A DNA stretch of 35,306 nt from Legionella nautarum. Its GTDB lineage: Bacteria > Pseudomonadota > Gammaproteobacteria > Legionellales > Legionellaceae. A program made the translations under genes and the position numbers. The notes under the pieces are model-generated. The model saw only the letters and a list, made by a program, of their open reading frames with translations, did not search any database and was not told where the DNA came from. Shown here in pieces: positions 5,032-31,671 of this stretch; the first letter of the stretch is position 1; every line of letters begins with the position of its first letter. The stretch lies in the NCBI RefSeq assembly GCF_001467895.1, contig NZ_LNYO01000017.1:31226-66531 (forward strand), written 5' to 3'.

Positions 5032-5085
5032 AGTTTTTTCAACTGAGAAAGAAGCATTTGCTAAAGACTAAATTTGGGAGTTCGT

Positions 5086-8000
5086 GTGCATTTTGAAGCA
5101 GATCAAATTATTTATTCTCCTTCTGACTTAACGCTGTATATGGAAAGTCCATTTGCTTCCCTAATGGAGCATTTGGCTTGTATTGAGCCATGCACGCTCG
5201 ATTTGGTAGATAAAGAAGATCCTTTGTTATCCGTATTGCAACATAAAGGCTTACAATTTGAGCAGGAAATTTTAACATCATTTATGTCGCAAGGCTTGCA
5301 AGTCGTATCTATTGAAAGAGGGAAGCACGCCTATCAGGATACTCTGAACGCCATGCACAAAGGTGTAGATGTCATCTATCAGGCAGCTTTATCCCTGTAT
5401 CCATTTAAAGGATATGCTGATTTTTTAATGAAGGTTGAGGGAGACAGTGATTTAGGAGCATTTCACTATGAACCTTGGGATATTAAGCTTTCAAAAACAG
5501 TTAAACCTCAGTTTGTTATTCAATTATGTTGTTATGCAGAAATGCTGGAAGTGATTCAAAATAAACGACCTAATAGGATTACTGTTGTTACGGGTGATAA
5601 ACAACAGGTTCAGTTGGCAACAAACGAACATTTTTATTACTACGTGCATCTTAAAGAACGGTTTTTTGAAGTGCATGGCCATTTTTCAAAAGAAGATTTA
5701 CCCGATCCAGCTGATTCTGATCGCTTTGGTCGTTGGTCTACCTATGCTAATGAACGTCTTATCGTGTCTGATCATTTATCTCAAGTTGCAACGATTACCA
5801 AGAGCCAAATCAAAAAGCTAAACAAGGCTGGAATCAAAACAATGCAATCCCTGATGGAACTGCCCCAATTGAGAGTTAAGGGAATTCAGACAGAAGTGCT
5901 TAAACGCCTTCAGTTACAGGCGAATATTCAAAAAATGAGTATAGGTAAAGAAAAACCTTTATACGAGATATTGCCACACGACAATCAAAAGAAAAGTGGT
6001 TTGGCTTTGCTTCCTCCTGAATCTCCATTGGACATTTATTTTGATATTGAAGGATTTCCTTTAGTAGATGGGGGATTAGAGTACCTTTGGGGCATTGCCT
6101 ATTTTGATGAGAAAGGAATTCGGCAATATAAAGACTTCTGGGCACATGATAAGGTGCAGGAACAAGCAGCATTTCAATCGTTTATCGAATGGGTATTTGA
6201 GCGTTGGCAACGTGATCCGCATATGCATATTTACCATTATGCGAATTATGAAATAGCCGCATGCCGGAAATTGATGGGACGGTATGGCATTTGTGAAGCC
6301 ATGGTGGATACTTTGTTGCGCAACGAGGTATTTGTTGATTTATACAAAATTGTTAAAGGCTGCTTGCGCTTAGGTGAGCCGCGTTATTCAATAAAAAATG
6401 TAGAGCATTTATACAGAGCGAAACGCGACACAGAAGTGGGGTCTGGTGGTGATTCTGTGGTGGTTTATGAACGTTGGCGTGAAGAGCCTGATGGAGATAG
6501 CTGGCAGAGCTCAAGCATTTTAAAAGCTATTCGGGATTATAATATTGATGATTGTCATTCTACCCAAGAGCTGGTCAATTGGTTGCGGGCTCGTCAGCAG
6601 GAGAATAGTATTATCTACCTCGGAAAAACTGAGATAGTGCCTGAGCCTGAAAATGAAACTATCACAGAATCTATTCGTTTACGTGACAAACTGCTTGAGA
6701 AGGCCAGTTACTTCAAAACACAAGGATTAGAACAAGAGAGTAAAGTTTCCAGTCTGTTTGCCTGGATCCTGGAATTTCATCGCCGTGAAAAGAAGCCGAT
6801 GTATTGGAGATTATTTGACAGGCTGGGATCAAGCTTTGATGAGTTGTTTGATGATATTGATTGTCTTGCCTATTGTGTACGTACTGATAAAGCCCCCTAT
6901 AAACCTACGCCACGATCTAAAAACTTAGCGTATGAATATCGGTTTGATCCAAGCCAGGAATTCAAAGCGGCTGCTGATAAATACAAAGTTTTGGGAGAAG
7001 AACGCCCAGACGGAAAAACATTAAGCGTTACCGTGGTTAAAGAAGATTCAAGATTGAATGAGGGTATCATTGTTCTACAGACGGGAGCCAACTTAAGTGA
7101 AGTTGTGACTTTAATTCCCGATGAAGACATCAATGCAGAACCGATCCCTACAGCGATCATGCACCGTGCCGAACAATTTTATCAAGGCCAATTAGAGAAT
7201 ACCGCGATTCATGATTTTTTGATGCGACATCCGCCTAGAATCACAGGAATGTTACCGGATTTGCCCATAGCGCCAAGTCATGAGCCATCTACCCGTTTGA
7301 CTCAAATTATTTCCGCCGTAATCAATCTGAATAATAGTTATCTTACTATTCAAGGCCCACCAGGCTCAGGCAAAACGTATACCGCAAAACATATTATTGC
7401 CGAACTTTTAAAACAGGGAAAACGAATAGGCATCTCGTCCAATAGCCACAAGGCGATTAATCATTTATTGATAAGCACTACTGAATATTGCAAAAAAGAA
7501 GGCATACCGGCTTATTTTGCCTGCACAAAAGAAACAGATGAGTCATTAACTAAACTTGGCATTTCTATCTTTGAAAATAAATCGATCGCGGGTAATTTGC
7601 GACCCTCATGTGTTATTGGAACCACTGCGTGGGGATTTGCAAGGCCAGATTTAGAAAATTCATTCGATTACTTATTCATCGATGAAGCAGGGCAGGTGAG
7701 TGTCGCGAATTTAATCGCGATGAGCCGTGCTACCAAAAATATCATCTTAATGGGTGATCAAATGCAGTTGGGACAACCCTCTCAAGGCAGCCACCCAGAA
7801 GAAAGTGGTGCATCAATTTTAGATTATTTATTACATACCACACCAACAATTCCTGAAAACATGGGCGTATTTCTAGGTACTACATATCGCATGCATTCAG
7901 CTGTCAATCAGTTTATCAGTGACGCTATTTATGAGGGCAAGTTGGAATCAGCAGTAGAAAATGACAAACAACGTATTTTAGTGCCTGAAACCTATCAAGG

Positions 8001-8496
8001 CATTTTAAATAAAGAAGCAGGTATCATTGCCGTACCAGTTATGCATGAAGGTAATACGCAGGCTAGCGATGAAGAAGTGGAACAAATTGTCTTATTAGCC
8101 CAAGATCTTCTTGGCCGAACATTTATTGATAAAGATGGGAAAGAACGCCTCATTGAGTGGCAGGATATCCTATATGTTGCACCATACAACCATCAGGTAA
8201 ACAAATTAAGGCAGGCTCTTGGAGAACAAGCCAAGGTGGGTAGTGTCGATAAATTCCAAGGACAGGAAGCACCGATTGTATTTTTGAGTATGTGTGCAAG
8301 TAGCGGCAATGAATCTCCACGGGGGATTGATTTCTTGTTCAACAAGAACAGAATGAATGTTGCTATTTCCCGTGCACAATGTATTGCAATCATGGTTTAT
8401 AGTCCGATGTTGCTTGATACCTGTGGCAATAATTTAGAGCAAATGGAAATGGTTAATCTATTTTGTACGTTATTGAAGAGTAAAAAATATACTTAA
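5086..8496 (+). CDS. TM0106-type RecB-like nuclease / RNase H-like / SF1 helicase fusion
   Basis: A large DNA-processing protein (about 1136 residues) combining three modules. The N-terminus is a RecB/Cas4-like PD-(D/E)XK nuclease (YSPSDLTLYMESPF, then GYADFL, WDIKLSK and QLCCYAEML) as in TM0106 family proteins. Next is a helix-hairpin-helix-like stretch and an RNase H-like exonuclease domain starting IYFDIEGFP near residue 317. The C-terminal third is a Dna2/UPF1-like superfamily 1 helicase. It has Walker A GPPGSGKT (about 757), Walker B LFIDEAGQ (about 864), motif III GDQMQLGQP (about 891), DKFQGQE (about 1055) and NVAISRAQ (about 1091). I chose GTG at 5086 because GGGAG sits five bases before it; an in-frame TTG lies 12 bases further up. 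It may repair or degrade foreign DNA; a defence role is inferred from context. All key residues appear intact. Confidence 0.85.
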   Translation: MHFEADQIIYSPSDLTLYMESPFASLMEHLACIEPCTLDLVDKEDPLLSVLQHKGLQFEQEILTSFMSQGLQVVSIERGKHAYQDTLNAMHKGVDVIYQAALSLYPFKGYADFLMKVEGDSDLGAFHYEPWDIKLSKTVKPQFVIQLCCYAEMLEVIQNKRPNRITVVTGDKQQVQLATNEHFYYYVHLKERFFEVHGHFSKEDLPDPADSDRFGRWSTYANERLIVSDHLSQVATITKSQIKKLNKAGIKTMQSLMELPQLRVKGIQTEVLKRLQLQANIQKMSIGKEKPLYEILPHDNQKKSGLALLPPESPLDIYFDIEGFPLVDGGLEYLWGIAYFDEKGIRQYKDFWAHDKVQEQAAFQSFIEWVFERWQRDPHMHIYHYANYEIAACRKLMGRYGICEAMVDTLLRNEVFVDLYKIVKGCLRLGEPRYSIKNVEHLYRAKRDTEVGSGGDSVVVYERWREEPDGDSWQSSSILKAIRDYNIDDCHSTQELVNWLRARQQENSIIYLGKTEIVPEPENETITESIRLRDKLLEKASYFKTQGLEQESKVSSLFAWILEFHRREKKPMYWRLFDRLGSSFDELFDDIDCLAYCVRTDKAPYKPTPRSKNLAYEYRFDPSQEFKAAADKYKVLGEERPDGKTLSVTVVKEDSRLNEGIIVLQTGANLSEVVTLIPDEDINAEPIPTAIMHRAEQFYQGQLENTAIHDFLMRHPPRITGMLPDLPIAPSHEPSTRLTQIISAVINLNNSYLTIQGPPGSGKTYTAKHIIAELLKQGKRIGISSNSHKAINHLLISTTEYCKKEGIPAYFACTKETDESLTKLGISIFENKSIAGNLRPSCVIGTTAWGFARPDLENSFDYLFIDEAGQVSVANLIAMSRATKNIILMGDQMQLGQPSQGSHPEESGASILDYLLHTTPTIPENMGVFLGTTYRMHSAVNQFISDAIYEGKLESAVENDKQRILVPETYQGILNKEAGIIAVPVMHEGNTQASDEEVEQIVLLAQDLLGRTFIDKDGKERLIEWQDILYVAPYNHQVNKLRQALGEQAKVGSVDKFQGQEAPIVFLSMCASSGNESPRGIDFLFNKNRMNVAISRAQCIAIMVYSPMLLDTCGNNLEQMEMVNLFCTLLKSKKYT

Positions 8497-8832: not shown

Positions 8833-11640
8833 ATGGTCAATCAGAATCCAGAACAAATAGCCCGCGATGAGATCGATGTTTTGCTTAGAAAAGCAGGCTG
8901 GGCTGTACAGGATAAAAAGAAGATCGATTTTTCTGCCTCGTTGGGTGTGGCTGTGCGTGAATATCAAACTGATATTGGCCCTGCTGATTATGTTCTTTTT
9001 GTAGACAAACAGGCAGTAGGTGTTATTGAAGCGAAGCCCGAGTATTGGGGCGAAAAAATCACTACCGTTGAAGAGCAATCCGCTAATTACGCAAATGCGA
9101 AACTCAAATGGGTTAACAACAACCAGCCATTGCGCTTTTTATATGAAAGTACAGGGGTAATCACCCGTTTTACCGATAATTTAGATCCGAATCCACGTTC
9201 ACGAGAAGTATTTAATTTTCATTGCCCTGAAACGCTAGAAAAATGGATGCGTGAAAATAAAAGTCTGCGTGGCCGTCTGCAAGATTTCCCACAACTTCAA
9301 ACCGATAGCTTGCGTAATTGTCAAATTACAGCAATTACTAATTTAGAGGATTCGCTCAAGCAAGACAAACCCCGTGCATTAGTACAAATGGCCACGGGCT
9401 CAGGCAAAACATTTACTGCTATTACAGCTAGCTATCGATTATTAAAAGAACCTGTGAGTGCCAATCGCATCTTGTTTTTGGTAGACACAAAAAACTTAGG
9501 CGAACAGGCAGAGCAAGAGTTTATGAGCTTTGTTCCCAATGACGATAACCGTAAGTTCACAGAGCTCTACTCCGTACAACGACTGAAAAACCAATACATC
9601 GCCAAAGATGCCCAGGTATGCATCAGTACGATCCAGCGGATGTACTCCATTCTGAAAGATGAACCGTTTGATGAAGCCTTGGAAGAAGAAAATCCCGCAG
9701 AAAAATACACTCGATTGAAAGAACCCTTACCGGTTGTTTACAATCGAAAAATTCCTCCAGAGTTTTTCGATATTATTATTATCGATGAATGTCACCGATC
9801 TATCTACAACCTATGGAGACAGGTTTTGGAATATTTCGATGCTTATTTGGTGGGATTGACTGCGACACCCGATAACCGTACCTATGGTTTCTTCCGTAAG
9901 AATGTAGTTAGCGAATATGACCACGAAAAGGCCGTGGCCGATGGTGTCAATGTCGGTAATGAAATCTATGTGATTGAAACTGAAAAAACTAAACAAGGTG
10001 GAAGGCTAACTGCCAAACAACAGGTAGAAAAGCGTGAGCGCACGACTCGTCGTAAACGTTGGGAAACACAAGATGAAGACGAAGCATATACAGGCAAGCA
10101 ACTGGATCGAAATATAGTCAATCCAGATCAGATCCGAACAGTGATTCATGCCTTTAAAGAAGCTCTACCTAGTATATTCCCTGGTCGCCAGGAAGTACCA
10201 AAAACGTTGGTTTTCGCTAAGACTGACAGTCATGCCGATGACATCATTCAAATTGTGCGTGAAGAATTTGGAGAAAGTAATCAATTCTGCAAAAAAGTAA
10301 CCTACAGGGTAGTAAATGACAAAACTGATGCGGATGGAAACATCATAGAAAAGGGAGAAGATCCAAAATCGGTGCTGGCTCAATTTCGGAATGATTACTA
10401 TCCACGTATTGCTGTGACCGTCGATATGATTGCCACTGGTACAGATGTGAAGCCATTAGAATGCTTACTATTTATGCGTGACGTAAAAAGCAAAAATTAT
10501 TTTGAACAGATGAAAGGTCGTGGTACTCGCACCTTGGATAAAGATAGTTTGCAAAAAGTTACGCCCTCTGCGCAAAGCGCAAAAACTCATTATGTGATAG
10601 TCGACGCTATTGGAGTTACACAATCGGTGAAGACTGCCAGTCAACCTCTTATTACAAAACCTGGTATATCACTTAAAGATTTAGCGATGGGAGTCATGAT
10701 GGGCGCTTGTGACAGCGATACAGTGTCTTCACTTGCCGGTCGCTTGGCGCGGCTAGACAAACAGTTAGACGATAAAGAGCGTGCCCGTATTGCGGAAAAA
10801 GCTAATGGTACACCATTATTAATGATTGTTGGTGAGCTGTTTAATGCTATTGATGGCGATCGAGTGGAACAAAAAGCACTGGAAATTACAGGTCAGCCAA
10901 CGGGTACGGATCCTGGAGAAACTGCACGTGAGCAGGCGCAAAAAGAGTTAGTACGTCAAGTTGCGAATGTGTTTAACGGTGAACTAATTGAACTGATTGA
11001 CACAATTCGCCGCGACAAAGAACAAACCATTGTACACGATGATTTAGATACCGTACTTAAAGCCGAATGGGCTGGTGAAACGACAGAAAATGCTAAAGTC
11101 TTAACTCAGGAGTTTGCTGAATATCTTCAACATCAAGCCGATAAGATCGATGCCTTAAACATTTATTTTCATACCCCAGCACGACGTTCTGCGGTCACCT
11201 ATTCTCAAATTAAAGACCTGCTAGAACAGCTCAAGCTAGATCGGCCAAAACTCGCTCCACTACGCATTTGGCATGCCTATGCACATCTCGATAAATATCA
11301 GGGTGATAATCCCATAAGCGAATTGACCGCATTAGTGGCGCTGATACGCCGTGTTTGTGGTATCGACAATCGTATTACACCATTTAATAAAACCGTTAGA
11401 AAGAACTTTCAGGATTGGATAATGAAGTATCATTCAGGCAACAGTGATAAATTTAACGAACAACAAATGGCTTGGCTGCATTTAATCCGAGATCATATCG
11501 CTAGCTCCTGCCACTTTGAGCGTGATGATCTAGATATGGCTCCTTTTAATGCTAAAGGTGGTTTGGGACGTATGTATCAGCTATTTGGTGATCGCATGGA
11601 TTGGGTTATACAAGAGTTAAATCAGGAATTGGTGGCGTAA
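8833..11640 (+). CDS. hsdR: type I restriction enzyme HsdR subunit (EcoEI-like)
   Basis: Motor and nuclease subunit of a type I restriction-modification enzyme. With HsdM and HsdS it translocates unmodified DNA and cuts it at a distance. The N-terminal nuclease domain shows D52 (GPADYVLF) and E66-A67-K68 (VIEAKPE). The helicase has Walker A ATGSGKT (187-193), a DECH box (about 318-321), LTATP, and the motif VI region QMKGRGTRTL (about 559-568). The C-terminal part matches EcoEI-type HsdR. At 935 residues it is complete. AGGTAAG lies about five bases before the ATG. A tiny leader frame of 8 codons (8800-8826) precedes it. The stop shares one base with the hsdS start. The cognate HsdM is not found in this window. 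Confidence 0.95.
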   Translation: MVNQNPEQIARDEIDVLLRKAGWAVQDKKKIDFSASLGVAVREYQTDIGPADYVLFVDKQAVGVIEAKPEYWGEKITTVEEQSANYANAKLKWVNNNQPLRFLYESTGVITRFTDNLDPNPRSREVFNFHCPETLEKWMRENKSLRGRLQDFPQLQTDSLRNCQITAITNLEDSLKQDKPRALVQMATGSGKTFTAITASYRLLKEPVSANRILFLVDTKNLGEQAEQEFMSFVPNDDNRKFTELYSVQRLKNQYIAKDAQVCISTIQRMYSILKDEPFDEALEEENPAEKYTRLKEPLPVVYNRKIPPEFFDIIIIDECHRSIYNLWRQVLEYFDAYLVGLTATPDNRTYGFFRKNVVSEYDHEKAVADGVNVGNEIYVIETEKTKQGGRLTAKQQVEKRERTTRRKRWETQDEDEAYTGKQLDRNIVNPDQIRTVIHAFKEALPSIFPGRQEVPKTLVFAKTDSHADDIIQIVREEFGESNQFCKKVTYRVVNDKTDADGNIIEKGEDPKSVLAQFRNDYYPRIAVTVDMIATGTDVKPLECLLFMRDVKSKNYFEQMKGRGTRTLDKDSLQKVTPSAQSAKTHYVIVDAIGVTQSVKTASQPLITKPGISLKDLAMGVMMGACDSDTVSSLAGRLARLDKQLDDKERARIAEKANGTPLLMIVGELFNAIDGDRVEQKALEITGQPTGTDPGETAREQAQKELVRQVANVFNGELIELIDTIRRDKEQTIVHDDLDTVLKAEWAGETTENAKVLTQEFAEYLQHQADKIDALNIYFHTPARRSAVTYSQIKDLLEQLKLDRPKLAPLRIWHAYAHLDKYQGDNPISELTALVALIRRVCGIDNRITPFNKTVRKNFQDWIMKYHSGNSDKFNEQQMAWLHLIRDHIASSCHFERDDLDMAPFNAKGGLGRMYQLFGDRMDWVIQELNQELVA

Positions 11641-13097
11641 TGGAATCAGAAACTAATTTGTATCAATTACCAAAAGGGTGGGTAAGAACAAAGGTTGGCG
11701 ATATTTTTGAGTTTGCATATGGTAAAGGATTGGTAAAAAGCGCTAGAAAAGAAACCGGTCCATATCCCGTGTATGGTTCTAACGGTGTTGTGGGTTTTCA
11801 TGATGAATATGTTACGGTGGGGCCAAAAGTAATTGTTGGTCGAAAAGGCGCAGCAGGGGCTGTTCACTATTGCAATGAAAACTGCTGGCCAATTGATACA
11901 ACATATTTTATTAACAGCATTAACGTCATAGATTCAAAATTTTCTTATTATCTCTTAAAAAATTTGCGTCTCAATCAATTTGAAACATCTACGGCCATAC
12001 CAGGATTAAATAGAGATGATGCCTACCGGTTGGATATTTTACTTCCTCCACCTCCTGAACAAAAACGCATCGTTGCCAAAATCGAAGAACTCTTCTCCGA
12101 ACTAGACAATGGCATCGCTGCCCTCAAAACCGTCCAAGAACAACTCAAAGTTTATCGCCAAGCTATACTCAAACACGCCTTCGAAGGCAAACTCACCGCC
12201 AAATGGCGCGAGGAAAACCCAGAAAAACTGGAAATCCCAGATCAACTACTCGCCTGCATCCAAAAAGAAAGAAAAACAAAACTTCAAGAGCTTGTTAATC
12301 AAGGAGATAATGAAGCAAAACGTTATCTAACAAAAATAGCGAGAGCTAAAGTTAATCGCCCTGAAAACAAATTACCCTTCAGTGCAAAATGGGTTTCATT
12401 AATTGAAATTTGTACCCTCATCGTCGATTGCCATAACAAAACAGCACCCTATGAAAATCAAGGAATATGGCTCATAAGAACACCATGTGTTAAAGATGGA
12501 AAGATATTTCTAAATGACGAAGCAAGATTCATCTCTGAAGAAACATATGAATATTGGGCAAAGCGCTGTTATCCAAAACCAGGTGACATTATTTTTACTC
12601 GCGAAGCACCAATGGGAGAAGTCGGTATTATTCCTGAAAATACTAAAATATGTATGGGCCAAAGAATGATGTTGCTTCGACCATCAAACCATTTAGCATC
12701 AAAATATCTTCTCTATTCAATGATGGAGCCTGGGTTCCAATCACGAATGAACTTATCTGCTGTAGGCACTGGTGTAAAGCATTTAAGAGTTGGTGATGTT
12801 GAAAATCTTTGTATTCCTATTTTTGGGAGAGCTGAGCAGTCAGCTATTATTGATATCTTGGATGAGCAATTATCTGTGATTGAAGAGCAAGAAAAAGAAA
12901 TAGAAGCATCCCTGAATAAATCCGAAGTTCTCCGCCAAGCCATTCTAAAAAAAGCCTTTTCAGGTCAGCTTGTTTCGCAAGACCCAGAAGATGAACCCGC
13001 CAGCAATTTGCTTGAGCGTATAAGAACAGAAAAGGCAGTAGCAGCCACAAAAACCACTAATAGAAAAAAGCAAAACAAGGTCGTTTGCCATGATTGA
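11640..13097 (+). CDS. hsdS: type I restriction specificity subunit HsdS
   Basis: DNA-recognition subunit of the type I system. It has the usual two-half layout. The first target-recognition domain (about 1-135) is followed by a conserved helical spacer starting PPPPEQKRIVAKIEELF, with the repeat-like segment RQAILKHAFEGKLT. The second recognition domain is followed by EQSAIIDILDEQLSVIE and RQAILKKAFSGQL. The two helical spacers are clearly related, as expected of HsdS. I chose the ATG at 11640, which overlaps the hsdR stop as TAATG (485 residues); an in-frame ATG at 11601 lies inside hsdR. The 3' end overlaps the next gene by 8 bases. The two recognition domains look unrelated to each other, which predicts a split, asymmetric target site. 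Normal full length. Confidence 0.94.
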   Translation: MESETNLYQLPKGWVRTKVGDIFEFAYGKGLVKSARKETGPYPVYGSNGVVGFHDEYVTVGPKVIVGRKGAAGAVHYCNENCWPIDTTYFINSINVIDSKFSYYLLKNLRLNQFETSTAIPGLNRDDAYRLDILLPPPPEQKRIVAKIEELFSELDNGIAALKTVQEQLKVYRQAILKHAFEGKLTAKWREENPEKLEIPDQLLACIQKERKTKLQELVNQGDNEAKRYLTKIARAKVNRPENKLPFSAKWVSLIEICTLIVDCHNKTAPYENQGIWLIRTPCVKDGKIFLNDEARFISEETYEYWAKRCYPKPGDIIFTREAPMGEVGIIPENTKICMGQRMMLLRPSNHLASKYLLYSMMEPGFQSRMNLSAVGTGVKHLRVGDVENLCIPIFGRAEQSAIIDILDEQLSVIEEQEKEIEASLNKSEVLRQAILKKAFSGQLVSQDPEDEPASNLLERIRTEKAVAATKTTNRKKQNKVVCHD

Positions 13098-14160
13098 ATC
13101 CTTATCCATAGCAAAAGTGGCAACTTATGGTGAACAAGCTGAAAATCTCTCTGGATTATCCAAATTTAATTTTATTTTTGGTTCAAATGGAACAGGAAAA
13201 ACGACTATTAGTCGAGTGATCGCAGATCCTGGTGGCTATGAACATTGCACAGCAAACTGGACAGCTAACACAAAACTTCAAACGCTAGTTTATAACCGTG
13301 ATTTTATTGACTCTAACTTTAATCCATCAACTGAAATTAAGGGTGTTTTTACTCTAGGAATGGAGAACATTGAATCACAAAACGAAATTCTTAGAGCAAA
13401 ATCAGATGTAGAAGAGCTGAGAAAAAAAATAATAACTTTGAAAAAAAATTTAGAAGGAGAAGATGGACAAGGCGGTAAAAATGAAGAATTGAAAACGCTT
13501 GAAGAGAATCTCAAAAATAAATGTTGGTTCCAAAAGCAACAATATGATGACAAGCTACATAGTGCGTTTGAAGGCTATCGCAACAATAAAGATAAATTTA
13601 AGGAAAAAATTATTCAGGAATGGAAAGACAATACAGTAACACTAAAACCCTTGGCTGATTTGGAAAAAAATGCCAAGACAATATTTGGTAAAACACCAGA
13701 TAAAGAAATTTTAATTCCGAGCTTTAATTCGGCCACTTTGATTGAATATGAATCAATCTCCATCCTCAGTAAGAGAGTTCTGGGCAAAGCAGATGTTGAC
13801 ATTGCAGGCATGATTAGAAAATTAGGTAACAGTGATTGGATTCGGCAAGGACGTCAGTTTTATGAAGAAAATGAGGGTGTTTGTCCTTTCTGTCAGCAAG
13901 AAACAAACGATGATTTTGCAAAGAGCCTGACTGAATACTTTGATGAGACTTTTGAGGAAGATACTAAAACGATTGATGATTTGGAGGCAAATTACAAATC
14001 AAAAGCAGCCCTTCTCCAGCAAGAGATTACCGAAATTATTTCTAAACCCTCTCGATTTTTAGATATAGAAAAGTTAACGCTGGAAAAACAGCTACTTGAT
14101 ACACGTGTAACACGCTGGCTGCCAAGCGAGATTCCATCGCGAATACTGTTAGCTCCATAA
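13090..14160 (+). CDS. RloC-like AAA ATPase with zinc-hook motif, 3'-truncated
   Basis: N-terminal part of an AAA_13-type, ABC/SMC-like ATPase resembling RloC, a tRNA anticodon nuclease linked to type I restriction loci. Walker A is FGSNGTGKTTISRVI (residues about 30-44). A charged coiled coil spans roughly 95-180. CPFC at residues 265-268 is in the place of a zinc hook, a known feature of RloC. The gene overlaps hsdS by 8 bases, the usual position of rloC/prrC-type genes. Native sequence ends near residue 337 (about 14100). The last about 19 residues, ending RILLAP, are the antisense strand of traD and not real ATPase sequence. The return coiled coil, the Walker B and signature regions and any nuclease domain are therefore missing, and the product is very likely inactive. 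A generic AAA_13 restriction-associated ATPase is the alternative. Confidence 0.8.
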   Translation: MIESLSIAKVATYGEQAENLSGLSKFNFIFGSNGTGKTTISRVIADPGGYEHCTANWTANTKLQTLVYNRDFIDSNFNPSTEIKGVFTLGMENIESQNEILRAKSDVEELRKKIITLKKNLEGEDGQGGKNEELKTLEENLKNKCWFQKQQYDDKLHSAFEGYRNNKDKFKEKIIQEWKDNTVTLKPLADLEKNAKTIFGKTPDKEILIPSFNSATLIEYESISILSKRVLGKADVDIAGMIRKLGNSDWIRQGRQFYEENEGVCPFCQQETNDDFAKSLTEYFDETFEEDTKTIDDLEANYKSKAALLQQEITEIISKPSRFLDIEKLTLEKQLLDTRVTRWLPSEIPSRILLAP

Positions 14161-15677
14161 GAATAATTTTCTCGTGACTCTTCAATTTCTTCTTCTCCCA
14201 ACTCGCTGGCAACCAAACGCGCCATATCTGCACTTGGGCTTCTAAAGAAAAATCGGGTGTTCAGCAGGTCAAACAATTCCTTAGCGCCACCTGATTGACC
14301 ATAAACTTTGGTGAGCTGTGAGAAACTTTGCATTCCTAATAAAAAGCAACCTCCGAATTTTCGGACTTCTGCAATGGTCTCTCCTAAAAGCGGTAATTTA
14401 TGAAGGCTTGGCAATTCATCGCAAATGAACCAAATCCGCCTATCTGGATTAGGCGTAAGGCTTAACAACGTGAGAGAGGCCATGGCTAGCCACATAGACA
14501 TCAAAGGCTTTAATGATTTATGTTGTTCGCCATTGGATGAAATAAAAAGCCAACCACTGTCCTGTTCATTTAATATGTAATTGCGAATAGAAAATGGGCT
14601 TACCCCTTCTGAATTCAATCCTGACAAGGTGGTAAGCGATTTTAAATAGGTGGTAATGACTGAGCGAATAGAAATAGCTGTTTTTTCAATTTTACCGCTT
14701 ACCAAAGTTGCAGCAGGGGTTCCTTTAAGGTAATCCTCCAAATGAGAAAATTCGCCGGTTAATAACAATTTAAGCAGTTTCTCAACGGATCGATCTTTGT
14801 CTTTTCGCATTTTAGCAGCAACTGAGGAGAATACGGTTCTCGCAGCATTCACCCAAAAGGGATCAGAATCACCATGCATCGGAATAAGGCTTTCTGCCAT
14901 GTTTTCAAAATCGGAATCCCGAGGTGCTTCAAGCCACATATCCCAATTAGGACACCTCGCATCAAATGGATTTAGAATGACATCCTGATTTGAATCAAAA
15001 TAATGCGGAATAAAGGCACATCCCTTATCATAGACAATAACTCTATCTCCCCTCTTGCGTAAGGCATCCATAATTTTCATAATGAGCTGACTTTTTCCTG
15101 TACCTACGGTTCCATGAACCAAAAGGTGTTGAACTTCGCTGTTCACTTTGAGCGGAAACCCATCAATGGTGATATCAGAGTTTTCTTTTTTCTCTAGGAT
15201 TTGTTGAATTACATTCTCCTTTGTATCAATACGGCTGCCACGAATAAACTGATTAGCCCGCTGCGCTTTACCCCTGCGAATAAAATAAAAGGCAAGACAA
15301 AGTCCTAAAACAAATGAAAGTACGAATGCTGCCAGGGAAGATTTTCCTAGTAGATCCACTATGTGATTGGCATTCTCTTTGTAATAGGGATAATGCAGAA
15401 TTGTATCCACGCTTTGTTGATAGTTTTTCCCGTGAAAGGGAAGCGTGAAGGTATGCTTTTGTTTCACGAGATTTAAGAAACTTGCATAGTAATAAGCAAT
15501 GGCTTGGTGGAATTTCTCAGGTGATGTAACTAGCCAAGTGATTAAGCCTGTTAATACGACCCAAAGAAAAAGACAAACCCATACCAGCGTTTTAGTAATT
15601 TGATCCCACATCCGCAGATTGTGAAAACTGATTTGCCCGCCACGGGTATAGTGTTTGAAATTAGGCTCTTCACGCAC
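13992..15677 (-). CDS. traD: TraD-like type IV coupling protein, C-terminally truncated
   Basis: Coupling ATPase (VirD4/TraD family) that brings the relaxosome to the secretion channel at the inner membrane. Two membrane segments lie near the N-terminus (VWVCLFLWVVLTGLITWLV and SSLAAFVLSFVLGLCLAFYF). Walker A is GTVGTGKSQLI (about 183-193) and the Walker B region is IWFICDELPSLHKLPLL (about 415). The start is GTG at 15677 with GGAG upstream. TraD-like sequence ends at SIRDGISLGSQRVTR, about residue 525, and the final about 36 residues come from the complement of the RloC-like gene. F TraD is about 717 residues, so the C-terminal region that contacts TraM and directs the relaxosome is missing. 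The ATPase core may fold, but specific docking should be lost. It is separated from the preceding gene by 91 bases. Confidence 0.9.
   Translation of the reverse strand: MREEPNFKHYTRGGQISFHNLRMWDQITKTLVWVCLFLWVVLTGLITWLVTSPEKFHQAIAYYYASFLNLVKQKHTFTLPFHGKNYQQSVDTILHYPYYKENANHIVDLLGKSSLAAFVLSFVLGLCLAFYFIRRGKAQRANQFIRGSRIDTKENVIQQILEKKENSDITIDGFPLKVNSEVQHLLVHGTVGTGKSQLIMKIMDALRKRGDRVIVYDKGCAFIPHYFDSNQDVILNPFDARCPNWDMWLEAPRDSDFENMAESLIPMHGDSDPFWVNAARTVFSSVAAKMRKDKDRSVEKLLKLLLTGEFSHLEDYLKGTPAATLVSGKIEKTAISIRSVITTYLKSLTTLSGLNSEGVSPFSIRNYILNEQDSGWLFISSNGEQHKSLKPLMSMWLAMASLTLLSLTPNPDRRIWFICDELPSLHKLPLLGETIAEVRKFGGCFLLGMQSFSQLTKVYGQSGGAKELFDLLNTRFFFRSPSADMARLVASELGEEEIEESRENYSYGANSIRDGISLGSQRVTRVSSSCFSSVNFSISKNREGLEIISVISCWRRAAFDL
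14098..14106. other. junction between truncated RloC-like gene and truncated traD
   Basis: Read on the minus strand, TraD-like sequence runs to GSQRVTR and then stops matching at 14103; what follows is the complement of the ATPase gene. Read on the plus strand, the ATPase frame enters the complement of traD at the same place. Both genes are cut at one point, as expected for a deletion or recombination that joined two regions. The palindrome ACACGTGT (14101-14108) lies at the joint. No target duplication or IS sequence is seen. Confidence 0.75.
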
Positions 15678-15768: not shown

Positions 15769-16356
15769 TTATTTCTGAGTTTCTTCTATTGAGATAGTTT
15801 TTCCTTTAGAAAAAAATTCATTGAATAGAGTAAATAAGCTGCTAAAACCAATACGGCTTAATTCCATGTTGACCACAAGATGAGTCGCTCCTAAACTCAG
15901 GAAGAAAGACAGTGCCAGCAGAAAAAAGATCTGCTGTCCAGAAGCATAGCTGCCAAACAAAATACAAAAAGATGCAAACACTCCAAAAAAAACCATTGAA
16001 ATGTGGCTGCATTTTTTTCTTATTAATGCACCAGTCTTTAATTTTTTCTCGAGATGAAACTGAAATTGAACAAAAAAACTAATCGGATTTAGCAAGATAA
16101 GCATGGCGACAGTACTTAAGAATAGAGCGGTAACACCAGAATCAATAAACAAGGTGGAAAAAGAGACTGACTCTTTGTCATCACTCATAACATAGCATAG
16201 CGTTAAAAACAGGATTATAGACATCAGCCATACCCCATTAAAAACTCCTTTTAAGAGTCCTCCGTAATAGACACGAGCAGGAATAATCTCTGGGTTTAAC
16301 ATTTTAATAGTTTTCATGTCCTCTGCTATGACTTGCTTTAATTGTTGTGGATCCAC
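15769..16356 (-). CDS. TraS-like inner-membrane protein, candidate entry-exclusion factor
   Basis: A 195-residue protein I do not recognise by sequence. It has four clear hydrophobic segments: GVWLMSIILFLTLCYVM, a segment around GVTALFLSTVAMLILL, ISMVFFGVFASFCILFGSY, and IFFLLALSFFLSLGATHLV. The N-terminus and a middle loop are charged. It lies one base after traG and just before traD, exactly where plasmid F carries traS, the inner-membrane entry-exclusion protein that blocks redundant mating through the recipient's TraG. TraS proteins are poorly conserved, so position and topology are the main support. No TraT-like lipoprotein gene is present next to it. Confidence 0.6.
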   Translation of the reverse strand: MDPQQLKQVIAEDMKTIKMLNPEIIPARVYYGGLLKGVFNGVWLMSIILFLTLCYVMSDDKESVSFSTLFIDSGVTALFLSTVAMLILLNPISFFVQFQFHLEKKLKTGALIRKKCSHISMVFFGVFASFCILFGSYASGQQIFFLLALSFFLSLGATHLVVNMELSRIGFSSLFTLFNEFFSKGKTISIEETQK

Positions 16357-16357
16357 T

Positions 16358-19165
16358 CTACTCTCCTTTTTTATGTAATTTCTTGTTCTCGAAAGGCAGG
16401 TGCATACTCTCTGGCACTACTACATTTTTTTGAGCATTGACCATGCCTTCTTGTAACTTCAAATTCCTTTCATTCATTAGATCATGCTGATCTGACTTAA
16501 TCAATTGCTCCCCTTGCTTAAGGTTTTGAGGCAAAGTAGCGTTTTGCTGATGTACCTCTTGCTGAAATACTCCAAGCTCTTTTCCATCAATGCCAACCTT
16601 CATTGATTGTGCTTGCTGAAGAAACTCTTCACTGTTTTTTTGATAGTGGGCTCCTAATTGATTTTCTTTAGCAATAAAATCGTTTTGTTCTTTTTGATAC
16701 AACGATTCAATCTGCATCTTTTGCTGCGTGTTACCAAATTGGGTAATTAACGCATCTCTTTTGGATGCAATAAACTCCTGGCCTAATGCCTGAAGTTTAT
16801 TAAGCGATTGCAGATCCCCTGGGCGGCTATACAATTCATCACGCTCTGACTCATTAAGCTTAGCAGCTACATAGGCTGGGAATGCTTGATTTAAATCAGT
16901 GGTTATTTGAGAAGAATGAGACTCCACGAAGCTTTTCGCATTCTGGATGCGTGTGGCTTTGGCAAGGGAAGCATCCACATTACGACTGGCTGTTTCTGCT
17001 TCTCGCAGATCAGCACCCAATTGATTAGACAACGAAGCTGCTTGTGAATGACTGTCATCAAAATGATGATTTTGAGAAAACTGCTTCACATAGCTCATTG
17101 CATCATTAAAATCACGCGATTCACGAGCTGAAAGAGCGACATCCATACCAGTATGGTATTTATCACTACTGGAAGAGTTACGATCAAATTTAAGATGCGC
17201 GTCAGCGCCCGCATGGAAACCAGTACCCAATTGTGCAAGCTTGCCAAATATACTGCCCTGGCTTTTAACACCAACTTGCGCACCCCAACCACCGCTTGTC
17301 AAATGAGTTAGTGCGTCTTCCTTACTAATTCCTGTGCGCCGTGCCACATCCTCTGCAATATGGCTAATAGTGGATAAGGCTTTGGAATATTGACCTGTTT
17401 CTGATTCTGATATCCCATCGCCTAGTCGCATGTCATGGCCTGCCAGTTGTGATAATTGCAATGCCCTATGGGCAAAATTAGACAATGAACTTTGATAGTG
17501 TGCCGATTCGTTTCGAGCCACCTGTGTAGATTGCTCATATGCCTGATTTAGTGACGCACTCAAACCCTCTTGAGCGTTAATAGATATAGCACTTCTCGTC
17601 ATTCCAGGACTAACATCAAAGACTCTATCGCCACTACCTGTGATGGTTTTTAATACCCCGCTGCCTAATTGTTCAGTATGCATGCCATGCATGTGTGTCC
17701 AATTGGAATCATGTTTGTTGGCTGAGAAATTATTCGCTGTTGTGTTATAAAAACTAGTTTGACCAAGACCAAAGGAACCACTAGCCGCCTCCCCTGCTAC
17801 CGACATGCTGGAGCCTTGCATATGACTCATCATACTGGTTGCAAGATTACTAAATGCGCCACCCAAATTAGAAACCAAACCATGCGACAGAAAAGGAATA
17901 AGCATCATCAAATAGCCACATGCCCCTGAAATATCTGCGTGCAATTCATCAATCTTATCCAGATTCACCATCGTAAACTGACCATATTCACCAGAAGAAG
18001 ATGCCCCATAAATAGTCATTCCAGCATTAAGTATTGCAAAAAGCACAGGCCAAAATTGCAGTGACATAAAAAACTGCATATAGCCGTAAAGAATACGTAT
18101 CCCACCTGGTAACGTGGTTAAAGCAATAATCAAAGGAAACACACCAAACAATAAAAGAGTCAGGCAGGTATGAGTAATCGGTAAAATCCATAAGGCTTTT
18201 TGCCCTAATACTTCCCAGCTCCAACGGTGTTGTACCTGAGACTTGGTAAATTGTTGATTCACAATTCCTGCCGTAGCATCCGTAAACGCCTGATAATGAG
18301 CCACGCCATCTCCCATGGCATTAATCATCATGCTTTGCAAAAAGATATTACTGGATGAGTCCGTTAATCCCTGATAATAATCAAAGGCTGATTTTAGATG
18401 GGTACTGAACAGTGCTTCATAAGTGGTATTCTTAGGCTTTCCAAACAAATTCACTCCAAAAAACGTATAGGCCTTTTTAATCTCAACATCTAATTTTTTT
18501 CGAAGACTGTATTGTCCATCAGGTTTTGAAGCCTCCTGGCAAGTCACTAATTTGCCACTCACCGAAATCATGCGAAGTGGTGAGGCACGCGTTGTGATGA
18601 GATTCCAGATGTCCGTGGAATGGGCTAAATCACCTACACTATACTTTCTATTTAATCGAATGTCCCCTACGACGCAAACGCGGAAATACTCATTCATTTC
18701 TTCCTTAAGCACCGGATCTTTAATTCGAAATGACGTTGACGCAGAAACCAGACGCGAACCAAAAAGAGCTCCTGTCTTGGTGTATTGCAAATCATCGGGC
18801 ATGGTAAGTAATGCATCGTAGGATTGAGCCAAACCATAGCCAATGGTTGTGACTAAACTGGCGCTTAACGCAAATATAACAGGTACATTATCTACAAGTT
18901 TCGGCGTTTGCGAAGAAATGTCATCAATCAGCACGGAGGTTTTAGGTAATAGCACCAAATTCACAAACAGCACATAACCTAAAAACCATCGAGCAAAAGC
19001 CATCGGATCGCGAGTTTTGAGAAAACCGATGGTGGCCATGACGATTCCAATTAATGCTGTAATTCGTAAAAGCCCAAGAAAACTATCCTGTTTCATAAAA
19101 GCACTAATGGCATTCAGCACGTGTTGGAATAATTCACCACCAGCTAAAACATGAATCGTTATCAT
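16358..19165 (-). CDS. traG: TraG, mating-pair stabilisation and pilus assembly protein
   Basis: Inner-membrane protein of F-type systems needed for pilus assembly (N-terminal part) and mating-pair stabilisation (C-terminal part). It is also the partner of the exclusion protein TraS. At 935 residues it is almost the same length as F TraG (about 938). The N-terminal half has several membrane segments (LLRITALIGIVMATIGFL, then FLGYVLFVNLVLL, then TCLTLLLFGVFPLIIAL and a run near 385-440). From about residue 450 the protein is hydrophilic and rich in Ser, Gln and His, with long helical stretches and the ending HKKGE. A GGAGAG ribosome site precedes the ATG. It follows traH after 12 bases. Confidence 0.95.
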   Translation of the reverse strand: MITIHVLAGGELFQHVLNAISAFMKQDSFLGLLRITALIGIVMATIGFLKTRDPMAFARWFLGYVLFVNLVLLPKTSVLIDDISSQTPKLVDNVPVIFALSASLVTTIGYGLAQSYDALLTMPDDLQYTKTGALFGSRLVSASTSFRIKDPVLKEEMNEYFRVCVVGDIRLNRKYSVGDLAHSTDIWNLITTRASPLRMISVSGKLVTCQEASKPDGQYSLRKKLDVEIKKAYTFFGVNLFGKPKNTTYEALFSTHLKSAFDYYQGLTDSSSNIFLQSMMINAMGDGVAHYQAFTDATAGIVNQQFTKSQVQHRWSWEVLGQKALWILPITHTCLTLLLFGVFPLIIALTTLPGGIRILYGYMQFFMSLQFWPVLFAILNAGMTIYGASSSGEYGQFTMVNLDKIDELHADISGACGYLMMLIPFLSHGLVSNLGGAFSNLATSMMSHMQGSSMSVAGEAASGSFGLGQTSFYNTTANNFSANKHDSNWTHMHGMHTEQLGSGVLKTITGSGDRVFDVSPGMTRSAISINAQEGLSASLNQAYEQSTQVARNESAHYQSSLSNFAHRALQLSQLAGHDMRLGDGISESETGQYSKALSTISHIAEDVARRTGISKEDALTHLTSGGWGAQVGVKSQGSIFGKLAQLGTGFHAGADAHLKFDRNSSSSDKYHTGMDVALSARESRDFNDAMSYVKQFSQNHHFDDSHSQAASLSNQLGADLREAETASRNVDASLAKATRIQNAKSFVESHSSQITTDLNQAFPAYVAAKLNESERDELYSRPGDLQSLNKLQALGQEFIASKRDALITQFGNTQQKMQIESLYQKEQNDFIAKENQLGAHYQKNSEEFLQQAQSMKVGIDGKELGVFQQEVHQQNATLPQNLKQGEQLIKSDQHDLMNERNLKLQEGMVNAQKNVVVPESMHLPFENKKLHKKGE

Positions 19166-19177
19166 CAGTTACTCTCC

Positions 19178-20542
19178 TTAACCCGCTGTGCTGTTCATTT
19201 GAGAGGCCACCTGCTTTTCAATTTGTGCCATACGCTCAATCAGGTTGAGCTTTTCTTGCAGTTTTCGACCTACCTTGGGATCAATAGAAGCTACGCGCGT
19301 GGTTGCCTCATTAATTCGTTTTTGAATTTCTTTGACCAAATCGGTATTTAATTCAGAACCTGCTGTTGCTACACTGACTTCAGTCAGTAATTCGGTTAAA
19401 TAATTGGTTAACAAGTCCTGAGCTATCAACATCGAATACTCTTCAATATCTACCGCGCTACTGCCGTAGTGCATACTGTTTAATACCGACAAAAACTTCA
19501 TGACAGGCAAAGATGTCATACTTAAAAAATTAAGCTCTCGATTGCCTGGCTTTTCGTCATTAATTAATTTGGTATTAATGGTGCGAATGATCTCCCGTAC
19601 TTTGTAGGTCAGCGTAGACGCTTCTGGGATGGTAATATCCTGCAAACTAACCTGCATGCATTGGCTATTGCTGCCCGCATCCTTACAACGCCATATTTTT
19701 GCAGTTTTAGCACCAACTCCGGTGCCAATCAGCGCATTCACTAAATCAGCATTTCCCGCAAGCGAGGGTACGTTGGTCACTTTACCTTCTTTATCAATAA
19801 TCAGTGTCCCCGTTAAACTCATCACCATTTCAGCCAACTCCCTGTCACTATTTAAAAATGATTTGGCTTGTAATAGTGACCATACAAGATTTTTATTTAA
19901 AACTACCTGCTTTTTACGCTCAGGGTCTTGAGATGCTTTGTTCATCACATTATCAAAGCCATTACCAGAACAGGCCATCCGCGCCTTCACATAATCACTG
20001 AACAATCCCTCTTTCCCCATGGCTGCCTGGTCTTTACAAATTTTTTGCTGGCTTTCTGCGGTTTTAGGCCAAATGCCACCAACCATATTTTGCGAGAGCT
20101 GACAAGAATTAATGCTGGCCTGATTGGCCATCTGCTCCAATTGCTGTAAATAATCCCTAACCTGTTTAAGTTCAGGCACCGTAGAAGCCAGCATCACATC
20201 CACTGCATAGGCACCAGCATTGGTCATAACCGATTTACCCAAATCAACAAGCTTTTGCTCACTTAAAAAACTCATGCTACCCGTAAATAAATCAATCCCC
20301 CCGCAGCCGGCACGGTAACTGGGCAAATCCAATTGTACCAGCTGGTACTGGCGAACCTGATTGCGAGCATAAAGTGAACCGCCGCCAAAAAATCCTGCTG
20401 CTTGAGATTCAAAGGCAGCAGGTGAAGTCGCATTTGAGGCATAACCCATTCCATTAAAAAAACCATCCAAATCTTGACTAACGTTCGCTTGAACAGTGGA
20501 GAAACAACCAATCAGACTAAGAGTGAGAACTAATTTTTTCAT
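19178..20542 (-). CDS. traH: TraH, conjugative pilus assembly protein
   Basis: Periplasmic F-type pilus assembly protein, thought to form an outer-membrane-associated complex with TraF, TraU, TraW, TrbB and TrbI. Residues 1-19 are a signal peptide (KKLVLTLSLIGCFSTVQA). Then come the hallmark features of TraH: a glycine- and alanine-rich stretch (AAGFFGGGSLYARNQV) and SYRAGCGGIDLFTGSMSFL. The C-terminus is a helical coiled-coil-like region (RKLQEKLNLIERMAQIEKQV). Its 454 residues match F TraH (about 458). The start overlaps the trbB stop by 4 bases. Conserved cysteines suggest dependence on TrbB. Confidence 0.95.
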   Translation of the reverse strand: MKKLVLTLSLIGCFSTVQANVSQDLDGFFNGMGYASNATSPAAFESQAAGFFGGGSLYARNQVRQYQLVQLDLPSYRAGCGGIDLFTGSMSFLSEQKLVDLGKSVMTNAGAYAVDVMLASTVPELKQVRDYLQQLEQMANQASINSCQLSQNMVGGIWPKTAESQQKICKDQAAMGKEGLFSDYVKARMACSGNGFDNVMNKASQDPERKKQVVLNKNLVWSLLQAKSFLNSDRELAEMVMSLTGTLIIDKEGKVTNVPSLAGNADLVNALIGTGVGAKTAKIWRCKDAGSNSQCMQVSLQDITIPEASTLTYKVREIIRTINTKLINDEKPGNRELNFLSMTSLPVMKFLSVLNSMHYGSSAVDIEEYSMLIAQDLLTNYLTELLTEVSVATAGSELNTDLVKEIQKRINEATTRVASIDPKVGRKLQEKLNLIERMAQIEKQVASQMNSTAG

Positions 20543-21048
20543 TCTATTTTCCCTTCGCTCTCATACATTTTGATTTTCGGAATCAGCACTTCCATGCGGC
20601 CATTTAGCTCAGCTTCCGTCATTGAACCAAACCCAACGGGATACAACGCTTTTGTGTTCGGGTTAACCACAAAAAGTGCTGGGTAATTAATGGCATTGCC
20701 TCCAAATGCGGCATTAATCCATTCCGTAGTTGCTGGTAAGAATTTGGGAAATTCCAGTAACGGTTGATTATCCAACGACAGAGGCATCAGCTCTGCTTTG
20801 TTGCGAGTAATCCAATGTTTCAAAATCGGCGCAAACTGCTTGCAGTGGGGGCATTGGCTGCCATAAAACAAAATCAACCCATGAGTACTAAAAAACCCCT
20901 TCCCTTTTGTATTGAGTGGCGCCTCGCGTTGATGCGTTACTACGCCTTCTTGTTCCGCTATCAGGTTAGTTAACCATTGTGACCCTTCGGCCTTAGCACC
21001 CAAGCCAATAAAAGCTAACATCACACTCAACAATACACGGGCAAACAT
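20539..21048 (-). CDS. trbB: TrbB-like periplasmic thiol-disulfide isomerase
   Basis: Thioredoxin-fold protein that helps form correct disulfides in the periplasmic Tra proteins. A signal peptide (FARVLLSVMLAFIGLGAKA) leads to a thioredoxin domain with active site FYGSQCPHCKQF at about residues 62-73. The cis-proline loop is NYPALFVVNP. The length of 169 residues is slightly less than F TrbB (about 180). ATG at 21048 overlaps the traF stop as TAATG. It lies between traF and traH as in F. Its likely clients are the cysteine-rich TraN and the cysteine-bearing TraH and TraU. Confidence 0.92.
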   Translation of the reverse strand: MFARVLLSVMLAFIGLGAKAEGSQWLTNLIAEQEGVVTHQREAPLNTKGKGFFSTHGLILFYGSQCPHCKQFAPILKHWITRNKAELMPLSLDNQPLLEFPKFLPATTEWINAAFGGNAINYPALFVVNPNTKALYPVGFGSMTEAELNGRMEVLIPKIKMYESEGKIE

Positions 21049-21791
21049 TATTCATCTCCTTTAAATTGGCTGTATACTTGTTTTATACGTTCCATCAAGA
21101 CATCCTGTGTAGTTAAGCCATATGCCACTGGTGAAACACGTTGGCTCACTGGGTTCACCAAAAGCAGTGCTGGAAAATAACGAACACCCAATCGATTCGC
21201 TTGCCCTTGATCCATTCGAGAATTCAGTAGTTCTGGAGAGGTTGCGCCATCGACACTAACGGGCATCAGATGAATGCGAAATCGCTTGCAAAAATCAACA
21301 ACAATGGGAATTTGCTTTAAGTCATAAGGGCTTTTTCCTCGATAGAAAAACAACAATCCATGAGATTTGGATAAACGGTTTATGACCTCTACTGTTTGGG
21401 ATTCGCGCACTTCATCGGTGATTTTGGCACCCAGATTAGAAGTTGGATGAGTCACCGCATAATCATATTCGGGATGCGCCAACATCGTTTGCTGAAACAA
21501 CGACTTAAACCGTGAGGATTCTTTAAGCCAGTAATCCTGGAGACTTAAAAATACGCGCATGTCCTCTACTTTTTTGGTATACCGTGCTTTATGAAGCGCT
21601 TCCATGGTGTAGAAACGCAAAACGGCATCGCGCTCAGTATAACTTAGGTTATTAAAGTCAATACCGGCGGGCTTTTTCTTCTCCACGCTTTTGTTTTCTT
21701 TTTCTTTTGTGTACCAAAGAAATCCCACGGGCTTATCGGCAAATACCACCCCATTAAGAAGCAAAAGTACCATCAGAATAGCTCTAGTCAT
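21048..21791 (-). CDS. traF: TraF, conjugative pilus assembly protein
   Basis: Periplasmic F-type pilus assembly protein with a thioredoxin-like fold. A signal peptide (TRAILMVLLLLNGVVFA) is followed by an N-terminal helical region and then the thioredoxin-like part from about residue 135. The position of the CXXC active site reads FFYRGKSPYDLKQI, so both catalytic cysteines are absent, as in F TraF, which is not a redox enzyme. The loop RYFPALLLVNP matches the cis-proline loop. At 247 residues it equals the length of F TraF. It overlaps traN by 8 bases. Confidence 0.94.
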   Translation of the reverse strand: MTRAILMVLLLLNGVVFADKPVGFLWYTKEKENKSVEKKKPAGIDFNNLSYTERDAVLRFYTMEALHKARYTKKVEDMRVFLSLQDYWLKESSRFKSLFQQTMLAHPEYDYAVTHPTSNLGAKITDEVRESQTVEVINRLSKSHGLLFFYRGKSPYDLKQIPIVVDFCKRFRIHLMPVSVDGATSPELLNSRMDQGQANRLGVRYFPALLLVNPVSQRVSPVAYGLTTQDVLMERIKQVYSQFKGDE

Positions 21792-23475: not shown

Positions 23476-23888
23476 CTAAGGCTCCTGACATCTTGAGGTG
23501 CAAAATCAACTTCCCCACGGCCTGCCATACGGGTGAATCCTTCTTGAATCGTCAAGTGACCATAAATCACATCAAAGGCTTTACCATCATCCATAACCAA
23601 AGCGGGGACTTGATGGATGCCAAAACGCTCAAACTTCGTTGGATCAATATTTAAACTTAAATCAGGAATACGCTTGCTTAATGCCATCACTTTGAGTGCT
23701 GTCTCACTCATCGAGTCATGGTATAGACCATTTATATACGCTGGAATATTTAGTTGGGCGCTTTCTTTTAATGTCTCTTGCAAAAGCGTATCTGGCATAG
23801 AAAAGCTAACAAACACAGATACTTGTACTGCAAAAGATGAAGTCATTATCAAAAATCCAATCAATAACAAAATTCCTTTTCTTAACAT
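23472..23888 (-). CDS. trbC: TrbC, F-type pilin assembly protein
   Basis: Periplasmic F-type protein needed for pilus assembly. I start it at the ATG at 23888, with GGGAG just upstream, because the signal peptide begins there (LRKGILLLIGFLIMTSSFA); a longer frame to 24026 runs back inside traU. The mature part has the TrbC signature VSVFVSFSMPDTLLQETL and the segment FGIHQVPALVMDDG. The latter is thioredoxin-like around the proline but has no active-site cysteines. The product is 138 residues, clearly shorter than F TrbC (about 212), lacking most of the N-terminal extension. The gap to traU is 13 bases. Confidence 0.92.
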   Translation of the reverse strand: MLRKGILLLIGFLIMTSSFAVQVSVFVSFSMPDTLLQETLKESAQLNIPAYINGLYHDSMSETALKVMALSKRIPDLSLNIDPTKFERFGIHQVPALVMDDGKAFDVIYGHLTIQEGFTRMAGRGEVDFAPQDVRSLR

Positions 23889-23901
23889 AGAATTCTCCCG
23901 A

Positions 23902-24885: not shown

Positions 24886-25510
24886 CACCATTCTCCTTGA
24901 TTGCTTGCTCATGAATGACCAGGTGATTTTGGTGACGTGTCACTTTTGCCGGTACATGGGTAATATGAAGCTTATGAGTGATTTTTCCTGCCTGATCGAA
25001 ATAAATCACCGCATTGAGTTTTTTCTCAGCTGTATTAATTGCACCGCCGGTCAGAATCAATTTAGGGTTCGCGCACTGAGTTTTTTGAAGTACCGCCCAA
25101 TTCAACTGTGCTTCATCATCGGCATTAAAGAATAACCAACACGGTGTGTAAGAAGGCATGTGTTGCAACGCATTTACATGAGTTCCTTTTGAGTACAAAA
25201 TTCGACCACTTTCATTAGTTATATCCTGGCTTAAGGTCATTTCTGGCGCGTAATCATGACGCATTGAACGGTTAGTGCGCGGAAGATCCAATGCTTTCGG
25301 CCTATTTGCGTGCTCGGCTGCTGTTTGAATCCAGCGTTGATTCATTGCTTCAAGCTCACCACTTGCTTTCAAAGCAGCTAATCGTTCTTCAATAAGCGTT
25401 AAAAAGCTCTTTTCCGCAATAGGAAACACTTCACCTACTACACCAAAAGACTTGGCGTGAACCTGCCCCGTTGAAATCGCAAGAAGAATCAAGCAACCAA
25501 AAATGTTCAC
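24875..25510 (-). CDS. traW: TraW, conjugative pilus assembly protein
   Basis: Periplasmic F-type pilus assembly protein that works with TrbC, TraU and TraF. Signal peptide at residues 1-19 (NIFGCLILLAISTGQVHA). The start of the mature protein has the TraW signature FGVVGEVFPIAEKSFLTLIE. Later come YSKGTHVNALQHMP and the C-terminal segment AVIYFDQAGKITHKLHI with HVPAKV, which is strongly conserved in TraW. Its 211 residues match F TraW (about 210). The start overlaps the trbI stop by 4 bases. Confidence 0.95.
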   Translation of the reverse strand: MNIFGCLILLAISTGQVHAKSFGVVGEVFPIAEKSFLTLIEERLAALKASGELEAMNQRWIQTAAEHANRPKALDLPRTNRSMRHDYAPEMTLSQDITNESGRILYSKGTHVNALQHMPSYTPCWLFFNADDEAQLNWAVLQKTQCANPKLILTGGAINTAEKKLNAVIYFDQAGKITHKLHITHVPAKVTRHQNHLVIHEQAIKENGDVL

Positions 25511-31352: not shown

Positions 31353-31361
31353 GTTCTCTCC

Positions 31362-31658: not shown

Positions 31659-31671
31659 CCTCTTTTCTCCT

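What the first reader, a model, noticed from the sequence alone, without database searches (positions are those of the whole stretch)
13950..14180. One junction truncates both traD and an RloC-like gene head to head
The plus-strand ATPase frame and the minus-strand traD frame both lose their family sequence at about 14103. Each then runs into the complement of the other. This is a fossil of one recombination or deletion that fused a defence cluster to a transfer operon, and it must have removed the end of traD and probably traI, hsdM and the end of the ATPase.
Basis: partly seen in the sequence, partly recalled or inferred. Interest (0 to 1): 0.8.

Follow-up and report, generated by a model that had tools for sequence, protein, structure and literature searches.

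The report
Deletion scar in a conjugative element
One stretch of DNA was probably lost from a mobile element in a Legionella genome, cutting off the ends of a DNA-transfer gene and a defence gene at the same spot; it looks like an ordinary, fairly recent scar that should leave the element unable to send its own DNA.

Summary
TraD homology (minus strand) starts at 14103; DNA homology of the plus-strand RloC-like ATPase ends at 14100. Each frame then reads the other's complement (18 and 36 foreign residues). The genes converge tail to tail, not head to head. L. brunensis has an intact sister of the TraD side (0 mismatches in 14103-15678, then the missing 86 residues and traI). traI, hsdM and the two gene ends were not found elsewhere in the 99.98%-complete assembly. 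Best explanation: one illegitimate deletion of at least about 8.9 kb inside an F-type element that already carried defence cargo beside its tra operon. It took the relaxase, the end of the coupling protein, the methylase and the nuclease domain; 15 other genes of the transfer operon align almost end to end with L. oakridgensis. One-step replacement by a truncated hsd fragment is not excluded: no element with the complete module beside traI was found. Ordinary decay, well resolved.

The parts
14100..14103 (.). junction: last base alignable to intact rloC DNA (14100), first base of intact traD DNA (14103)
13090..14160 (+). truncated RloC-like ATPase: Walker A and CPFC hook kept; ABC signature, Walker B and nuclease triad absent; last 18 residues read from antisense traD
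13992..15677 (-). truncated F-type traD (residues 1-525; intact copy in L. brunensis 611) plus 36 residues from antisense rloC
8833..11640 (+). hsdR, type I restriction subunit, 935 aa; no N6_Mtase (hsdM) found in the genome
11643..13097 (+). hsdS, type I specificity subunit
5074..8496 (+). TM0106 RecB-like nuclease with SF1 helicase part; also directly upstream of hsdR-hsdS in L091, but not in L060
4438..5031 (+). MazG-like gene, full frame here; partial in L. brunensis, small remnant in L. oakridgensis
2815..4323 (+). YfjI/DUF3987, backbone gene on the far side of the cargo site
15769..31682 (-). rest of the F-type transfer operon (195-aa gene, traG to traL); 15 genes checked against L. oakridgensis, trbC (23472-24026) not checked

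Best explanation
The junction is the scar of one illegitimate (non-homologous) deletion inside an F-type (MPF_F/MOBF) conjugative element of a Legionella genome. The ancestor read YfjI-MazG-TM0106-hsdR-hsdS-rloC-hsdM-...-traI-traD-traG... The deletion ran from about codon 338 of rloC to codon 525 of traD and took the rloC C-terminal half, hsdM, anything behind it, traI and the last 86 codons of traD (at least about 8.9 kb, summed from relatives). Shown: the shared breakpoint, intact relatives of each side, and failure to find the lost pieces in this genome. Inferred: that it was one step, that the hsd module was once complete here, that the TraD and RloC remnants are inactive, that HsdR/HsdS are silent without HsdM, and that the element can no longer transfer itself.
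For: Homologies end at 14100 and begin at 14103. Intact traD-traI in L. brunensis with 0 mismatches over 14103-15678; intact traD-mobF on an L. oakridgensis plasmid, 88% identical over 14103-34914, with YfjI on the other side. hsdR-hsdS-rloC-hsdM in L060, 80-83% DNA identity over 8518-14100 in two pieces (its hsdR holds a run of unread bases). A methylase gene lies downstream of hsdS and one or more other genes in 3 of 4 neighbourhoods of close hsdR relatives that I read: L060, L069, L091/L093. Not found in own genome: traI and traD end by DNA, TrwC relaxase (control rang in E. coli only, 1 of 14), N6_Mtase (control rang in 13 of 14), a second TraD_F above cut-off, a second AAA_13, rloC end plus hsdM by DNA.
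Against: No element with the complete hsd module beside traI was found; the rloC start matches 2 of 143 order genomes, own included, at E 1e-15, so the earlier state is pieced together from different relatives. In L060 hsdR is not preceded by TM0106. None of five fetched MazG or TM0106 loci (L088-L092; 61 of 112 genomes matched) has traD, traG or traI in the stretch read. The fourth hsdR neighbourhood, L070, shows no annotated hsdS or hsdM and an insertion sequence behind hsdR (that gene table is incomplete). In L072 the order is hsdM-hsdS-hsdR-AAA_13. The exact rloC parent is unknown, so microhomology cannot be judged. One search had no positive control. My confidence went from 0.78 to 0.75 on rereading these.
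Confidence: 0.75

Rival explanations
1. One-step replacement: a linear hsdR-hsdS-rloC' fragment (by transformation or transfer) recombined into the cargo site, by homology at its left end and illegitimately at its right end inside traD, replacing traI. hsdM was never there.
For: Gives the same junction. The block similar to L060 spans 8518-14100 and starts just after the TM0106 gene, which L060 lacks at that place. Homology-facilitated illegitimate recombination is described in three competent species and in E. coli conjugation (PMC3240628, start of abstract seen).
Against: TM0106-hsdR-hsdS occurs as a unit in L091, so 8518 need not be an insertion edge. It needs a fragment that happened to lack hsdM.
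Confidence: 0.17
2. Assembly artefact: two unrelated pieces were joined at 14103.
For: Draft assembly of 27 contigs; reads not available.
Against: The severed pieces were found on no other contig of an assembly scored 99.98% complete; no direct repeat at the joint within 13500-14700.
Confidence: 0.04
3. Several nested deletions, or an inserted and later lost mobile element, with only the last boundary visible.
For: The neighbouring cargo site shows other scars: MazG is cut after about 55-57 codons in L. brunensis and reduced to a 37-bp remnant match in L. oakridgensis.
Against: At most two unassigned bases (14101-14102) lie at the joint; one event suffices.
Confidence: 0.12

Closest known systems
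F-type conjugative plasmid of Legionella oakridgensis (NZ_CP004007.1) and the L. brunensis element (NZ_LNXV01000037)
   Same: YfjI - cargo - traI - traD - traG layout; tra DNA 88% and about 96% identical where it aligns
   Different: Both keep traI and full-length traD; no hsdR, hsdS or rloC match in the stretches read
RloC anticodon nuclease (Geobacillus kaustophilus protein; PMC2610378, passages read)
   Same: ABC ATPase with a zinc-hook type CxxC; 5 of 5 intact relatives carry R-X3-E-X37-H with Ser before His, within the paper's R-X3-E-X36-52-H
   Different: The window copy lacks signature, Walker B and triad; it lies beside type I restriction genes, a linkage the paper's abstract calls rare for RloC
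Decayed ICEs and IMEs (e.g. PMC7563491, PMC5357655; search listing and start of abstract only)
   Same: Elements that have lost parts of the transfer machinery
   Different: Here the loss is tied to one junction, resolved to about three bases, with a defence cargo gene

Membership tests
TraD, F-type coupling protein (TIGR02759) | score above the curated cut-off | tested here: met
   800.2 bits against cut-off 521.35
TraD, F-type coupling protein (TIGR02759) | complete motor domain and C-terminal tail | tested here: not met
   TrwB_AAD_bind 2-355 of 387, against 2-387 in the intact L. brunensis copy
RloC | ABC ATPase Walker A and CxxC hook | tested here: met
   GSNGTGKT at residue 31, CPFC at 265
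RloC | C-proximal R-X3-E-X36-52-H nuclease triad | tested here: not met
   absent from the window frame; present in 5 of 5 intact relatives: a remnant, not a working RloC
RloC | anticodon cleavage | not testable with these tools
   needs an assay
Type I restriction-modification system | HsdR, HsdS and HsdM together | tested here: not met
   R and S present; no N6_Mtase in the genome
F-type self-transmissible element | mating-pair genes, whole coupling protein and relaxase | tested here: not met
   mating-pair genes checked are near full length; TraD cut; no TrwC relaxase in the genome

The most novel reading that the evidence does not exclude
The deletion was favoured because one stroke disarmed an addictive defence module (methylase and anticodon nuclease together) and the element's own export, while the intact mating-pair channel was kept and now serves another element or function in the cell.
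Probability: 0.08. Interest if true: 0.5.

Novelty: new member of a known kind. Interest (0 to 1): 0.25.

Why it matters
It shows, to within about three bases, how a conjugative element can lose self-transfer while keeping its channel genes, and how a type I system may lose its methylase and its linked RloC nuclease together. It also warns that the HsdR/HsdS and AAA_13 hits here should not be counted as a working defence system.

Tried and rejected
Inversion or translocation: set aside because the reciprocal pieces were not found in the genome. Homologues sharing the foreign TraD tail: 0 of 36 loci. Repeat-mediated deletion: no direct repeat at the joint in 13500-14700; that call did list a 17-nt, 88% inverted pair (14081-14097 with 14672-14688) whose first arm ends three bases before the joint. 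It was not followed up and may be chance. The 10-bp palindrome TACACGTGTA at 14100-14109 is one of 36 ten-base palindromes in the window and spans the joint, so I take it as chance. tRNA target beside the element: none found in L067, L068 or the window. Promoter and terminator scan of 12900-16400: counts near those of shuffles (10 against 8.1; 4 against 2.6), nothing used. Papers: Legionella with integrative conjugative, F-type and defense systems gave 0; Legionella, traD, type IV secretion, genomic island and restriction-modification gave 12, seen as listing and starts of abstracts only. No further search for this junction in print was made.

Full report
Setting. The window is C17:31226-66531 of a 27-contig, 3.65-Mb assembly (C17 is 170,917 bp). 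Its named relatives are Legionella. Genes that I would call sdh and recX (my naming from the frames, no call) lie to the left and insertion-sequence-like genes to the right, so the element is probably chromosomal.

The junction. The plus-strand frame 13090-14160 is AAA_13 up to profile position 333 of 713; the minus-strand frame 15677-13992 is TraD_Ftype up to position 518 of 566. Against relatives, rloC DNA similarity ends at 14100 and traD DNA similarity begins at 14103. The genes are convergent. Past the joint the ATPase frame has 18 and the TraD frame 36 residues read from the other gene's complement.

The TraD side. L. brunensis (L016/L061) has an intact 611-aa traD followed by a 1971-aa traI with a TrwC relaxase domain. 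Window and L. brunensis do not differ in 14103-15678, while L. oakridgensis differs at 98 of 1575 and G004 at 77 of 1543 positions. The cut copy is thus as yet unchanged from a copy that is still intact, which suggests a recent deletion. (The L. brunensis contig has a run of unread bases and a repeated stretch in traG, so its traG is not reliable.) Across 36 loci (33, plus L063, L065, L071; L021 and L065 look like one contig) the true tail follows residue 525 in 34, and traI sequence lies downstream in 35; the miss, L041, ends 230 bp after the core. In one search, 6 of 22 genus genomes match the region, own included, and all ten alignments outside the own genome start at or beyond 14103. In one search the same holds for the 30 listed of 48 plasmid records.

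The ATPase side. In 143 genomes of the order only the own genome and G080 match at E 1e-15. G080 has a 740-aa protein covering AAA_13 3-713, in the order hsdR-hsdS-rloC-hsdM, with further ATPase and SbcD/SbcC-like genes behind (the last names are mine). PADLOC places both copies in its candidate group PDC-S06, the window copy over 1-335 of 732 and the G080 copy over 1-728; the G080 copy also matches PrrC weakly in its C-terminal half. G080 and four plasmid relatives carry the RloC triad R-X3-E-X37-H, the signature and Walker B; the window copy keeps only Walker A and CPFC (triad definition from passages of PMC2610378).

Where hsdM sits. In L060, L069 (Gemmobacter) and L091/L093 (G028) a methylase gene lies behind hsdR-hsdS and one or more other genes (in L069 by its annotation). 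A fourth hsdR neighbourhood, L070, shows none in an incomplete table. Of four AAA_13 plasmid neighbourhoods read from 30 listed of 150 records, L072 has hsdM first and AAA_13 last, and L073-L075 have no hsdR or hsdS annotated beside it. So hsdM downstream fits the close hsdRS relatives, not AAA_13 loci in general.

What is missing from the genome. No traI or traD end by DNA: the four matches are traD up to the joint, the MazG piece, and two short ones outside traI. No TrwC relaxase, no N6_Mtase, no second AAA_13, no rloC end or hsdM by DNA (no positive control). Two other TraD-like hits (C27, C6; 47.9 and 26 bits) are far below the cut-off of 521. The lost rloC end (1209 bp), hsdM (1524 bp), traD end (261 bp) and traI (5916 bp), taken from the relatives' frames, add up to about 8.9 kb.

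Was it a fusion? YfjI, and MazG or pieces of it, stand on the far side of the cargo site in L. brunensis and L. oakridgensis. TM0106-hsdR-hsdS is a unit in G028, though not in G080. None of five fetched MazG or TM0106 loci carries tra genes in the stretch read. The cargo was most likely resident before the event, but one-step replacement by a truncated fragment leaves the same scar and stays open at about 0.17.

Consequence (inference). TraD without the end of its motor domain and tail, and no relaxase: no self-transfer. Fifteen other genes of the operon (14 tra/trb genes and the 195-aa gene) align to L. oakridgensis with at most five residues missing at either end and no internal stops (trbC not checked). 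HsdR and HsdS without HsdM should neither modify nor restrict; RloC without its triad should not cleave tRNA. Losing methylase and nuclease together may be why the deletion was tolerated.

Verdict. Observation right to within three bases; interpretation right in what was lost, too strong on 'fusion'. Ordinary decay of a mobile element.

Noticed in passing
window 15967-17100: Between window and L. brunensis, identity is near 100% on both sides (checked to 17880) but drops here (up to 75 of 250 bases): the 195-aa gene between traG and traD plus the traG 3' end. F places its entry-exclusion gene traS there (recalled), so this may be an exclusion-specificity swap. The gene has no Pfam match.
   Followed up: partly
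L063 7482-11422 (G004:C2): A sister element shows the opposite loss: traD from residue 12 on and traI are kept, but window 15645 is joined to 32771 with a 4-base overlap, so the mating-pair operon is gone from that place.
   Followed up: partly
window 4438-4603; L061 1008-1199; L071 11745-11780: MazG-like cargo gene is a full frame here, cut after about 55-57 codons in L. brunensis, and a small remnant in L. oakridgensis: the cargo site looks prone to deletion.
   Followed up: partly
window 5074-8496; L091; L088: A TM0106 RecB-like nuclease/helicase lies directly upstream of type I restriction genes here and in G028, and 1.9 kb from a distant HsdM-like match in G034: a possible partner of type I systems.
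   Followed up: partly
window 34913-35306 and L068 6824-7217: Two 89%-identical copies of a stretch with a transposase-like frame at the right edge of the element, with other transposase-like frames beyond.
   Followed up: no
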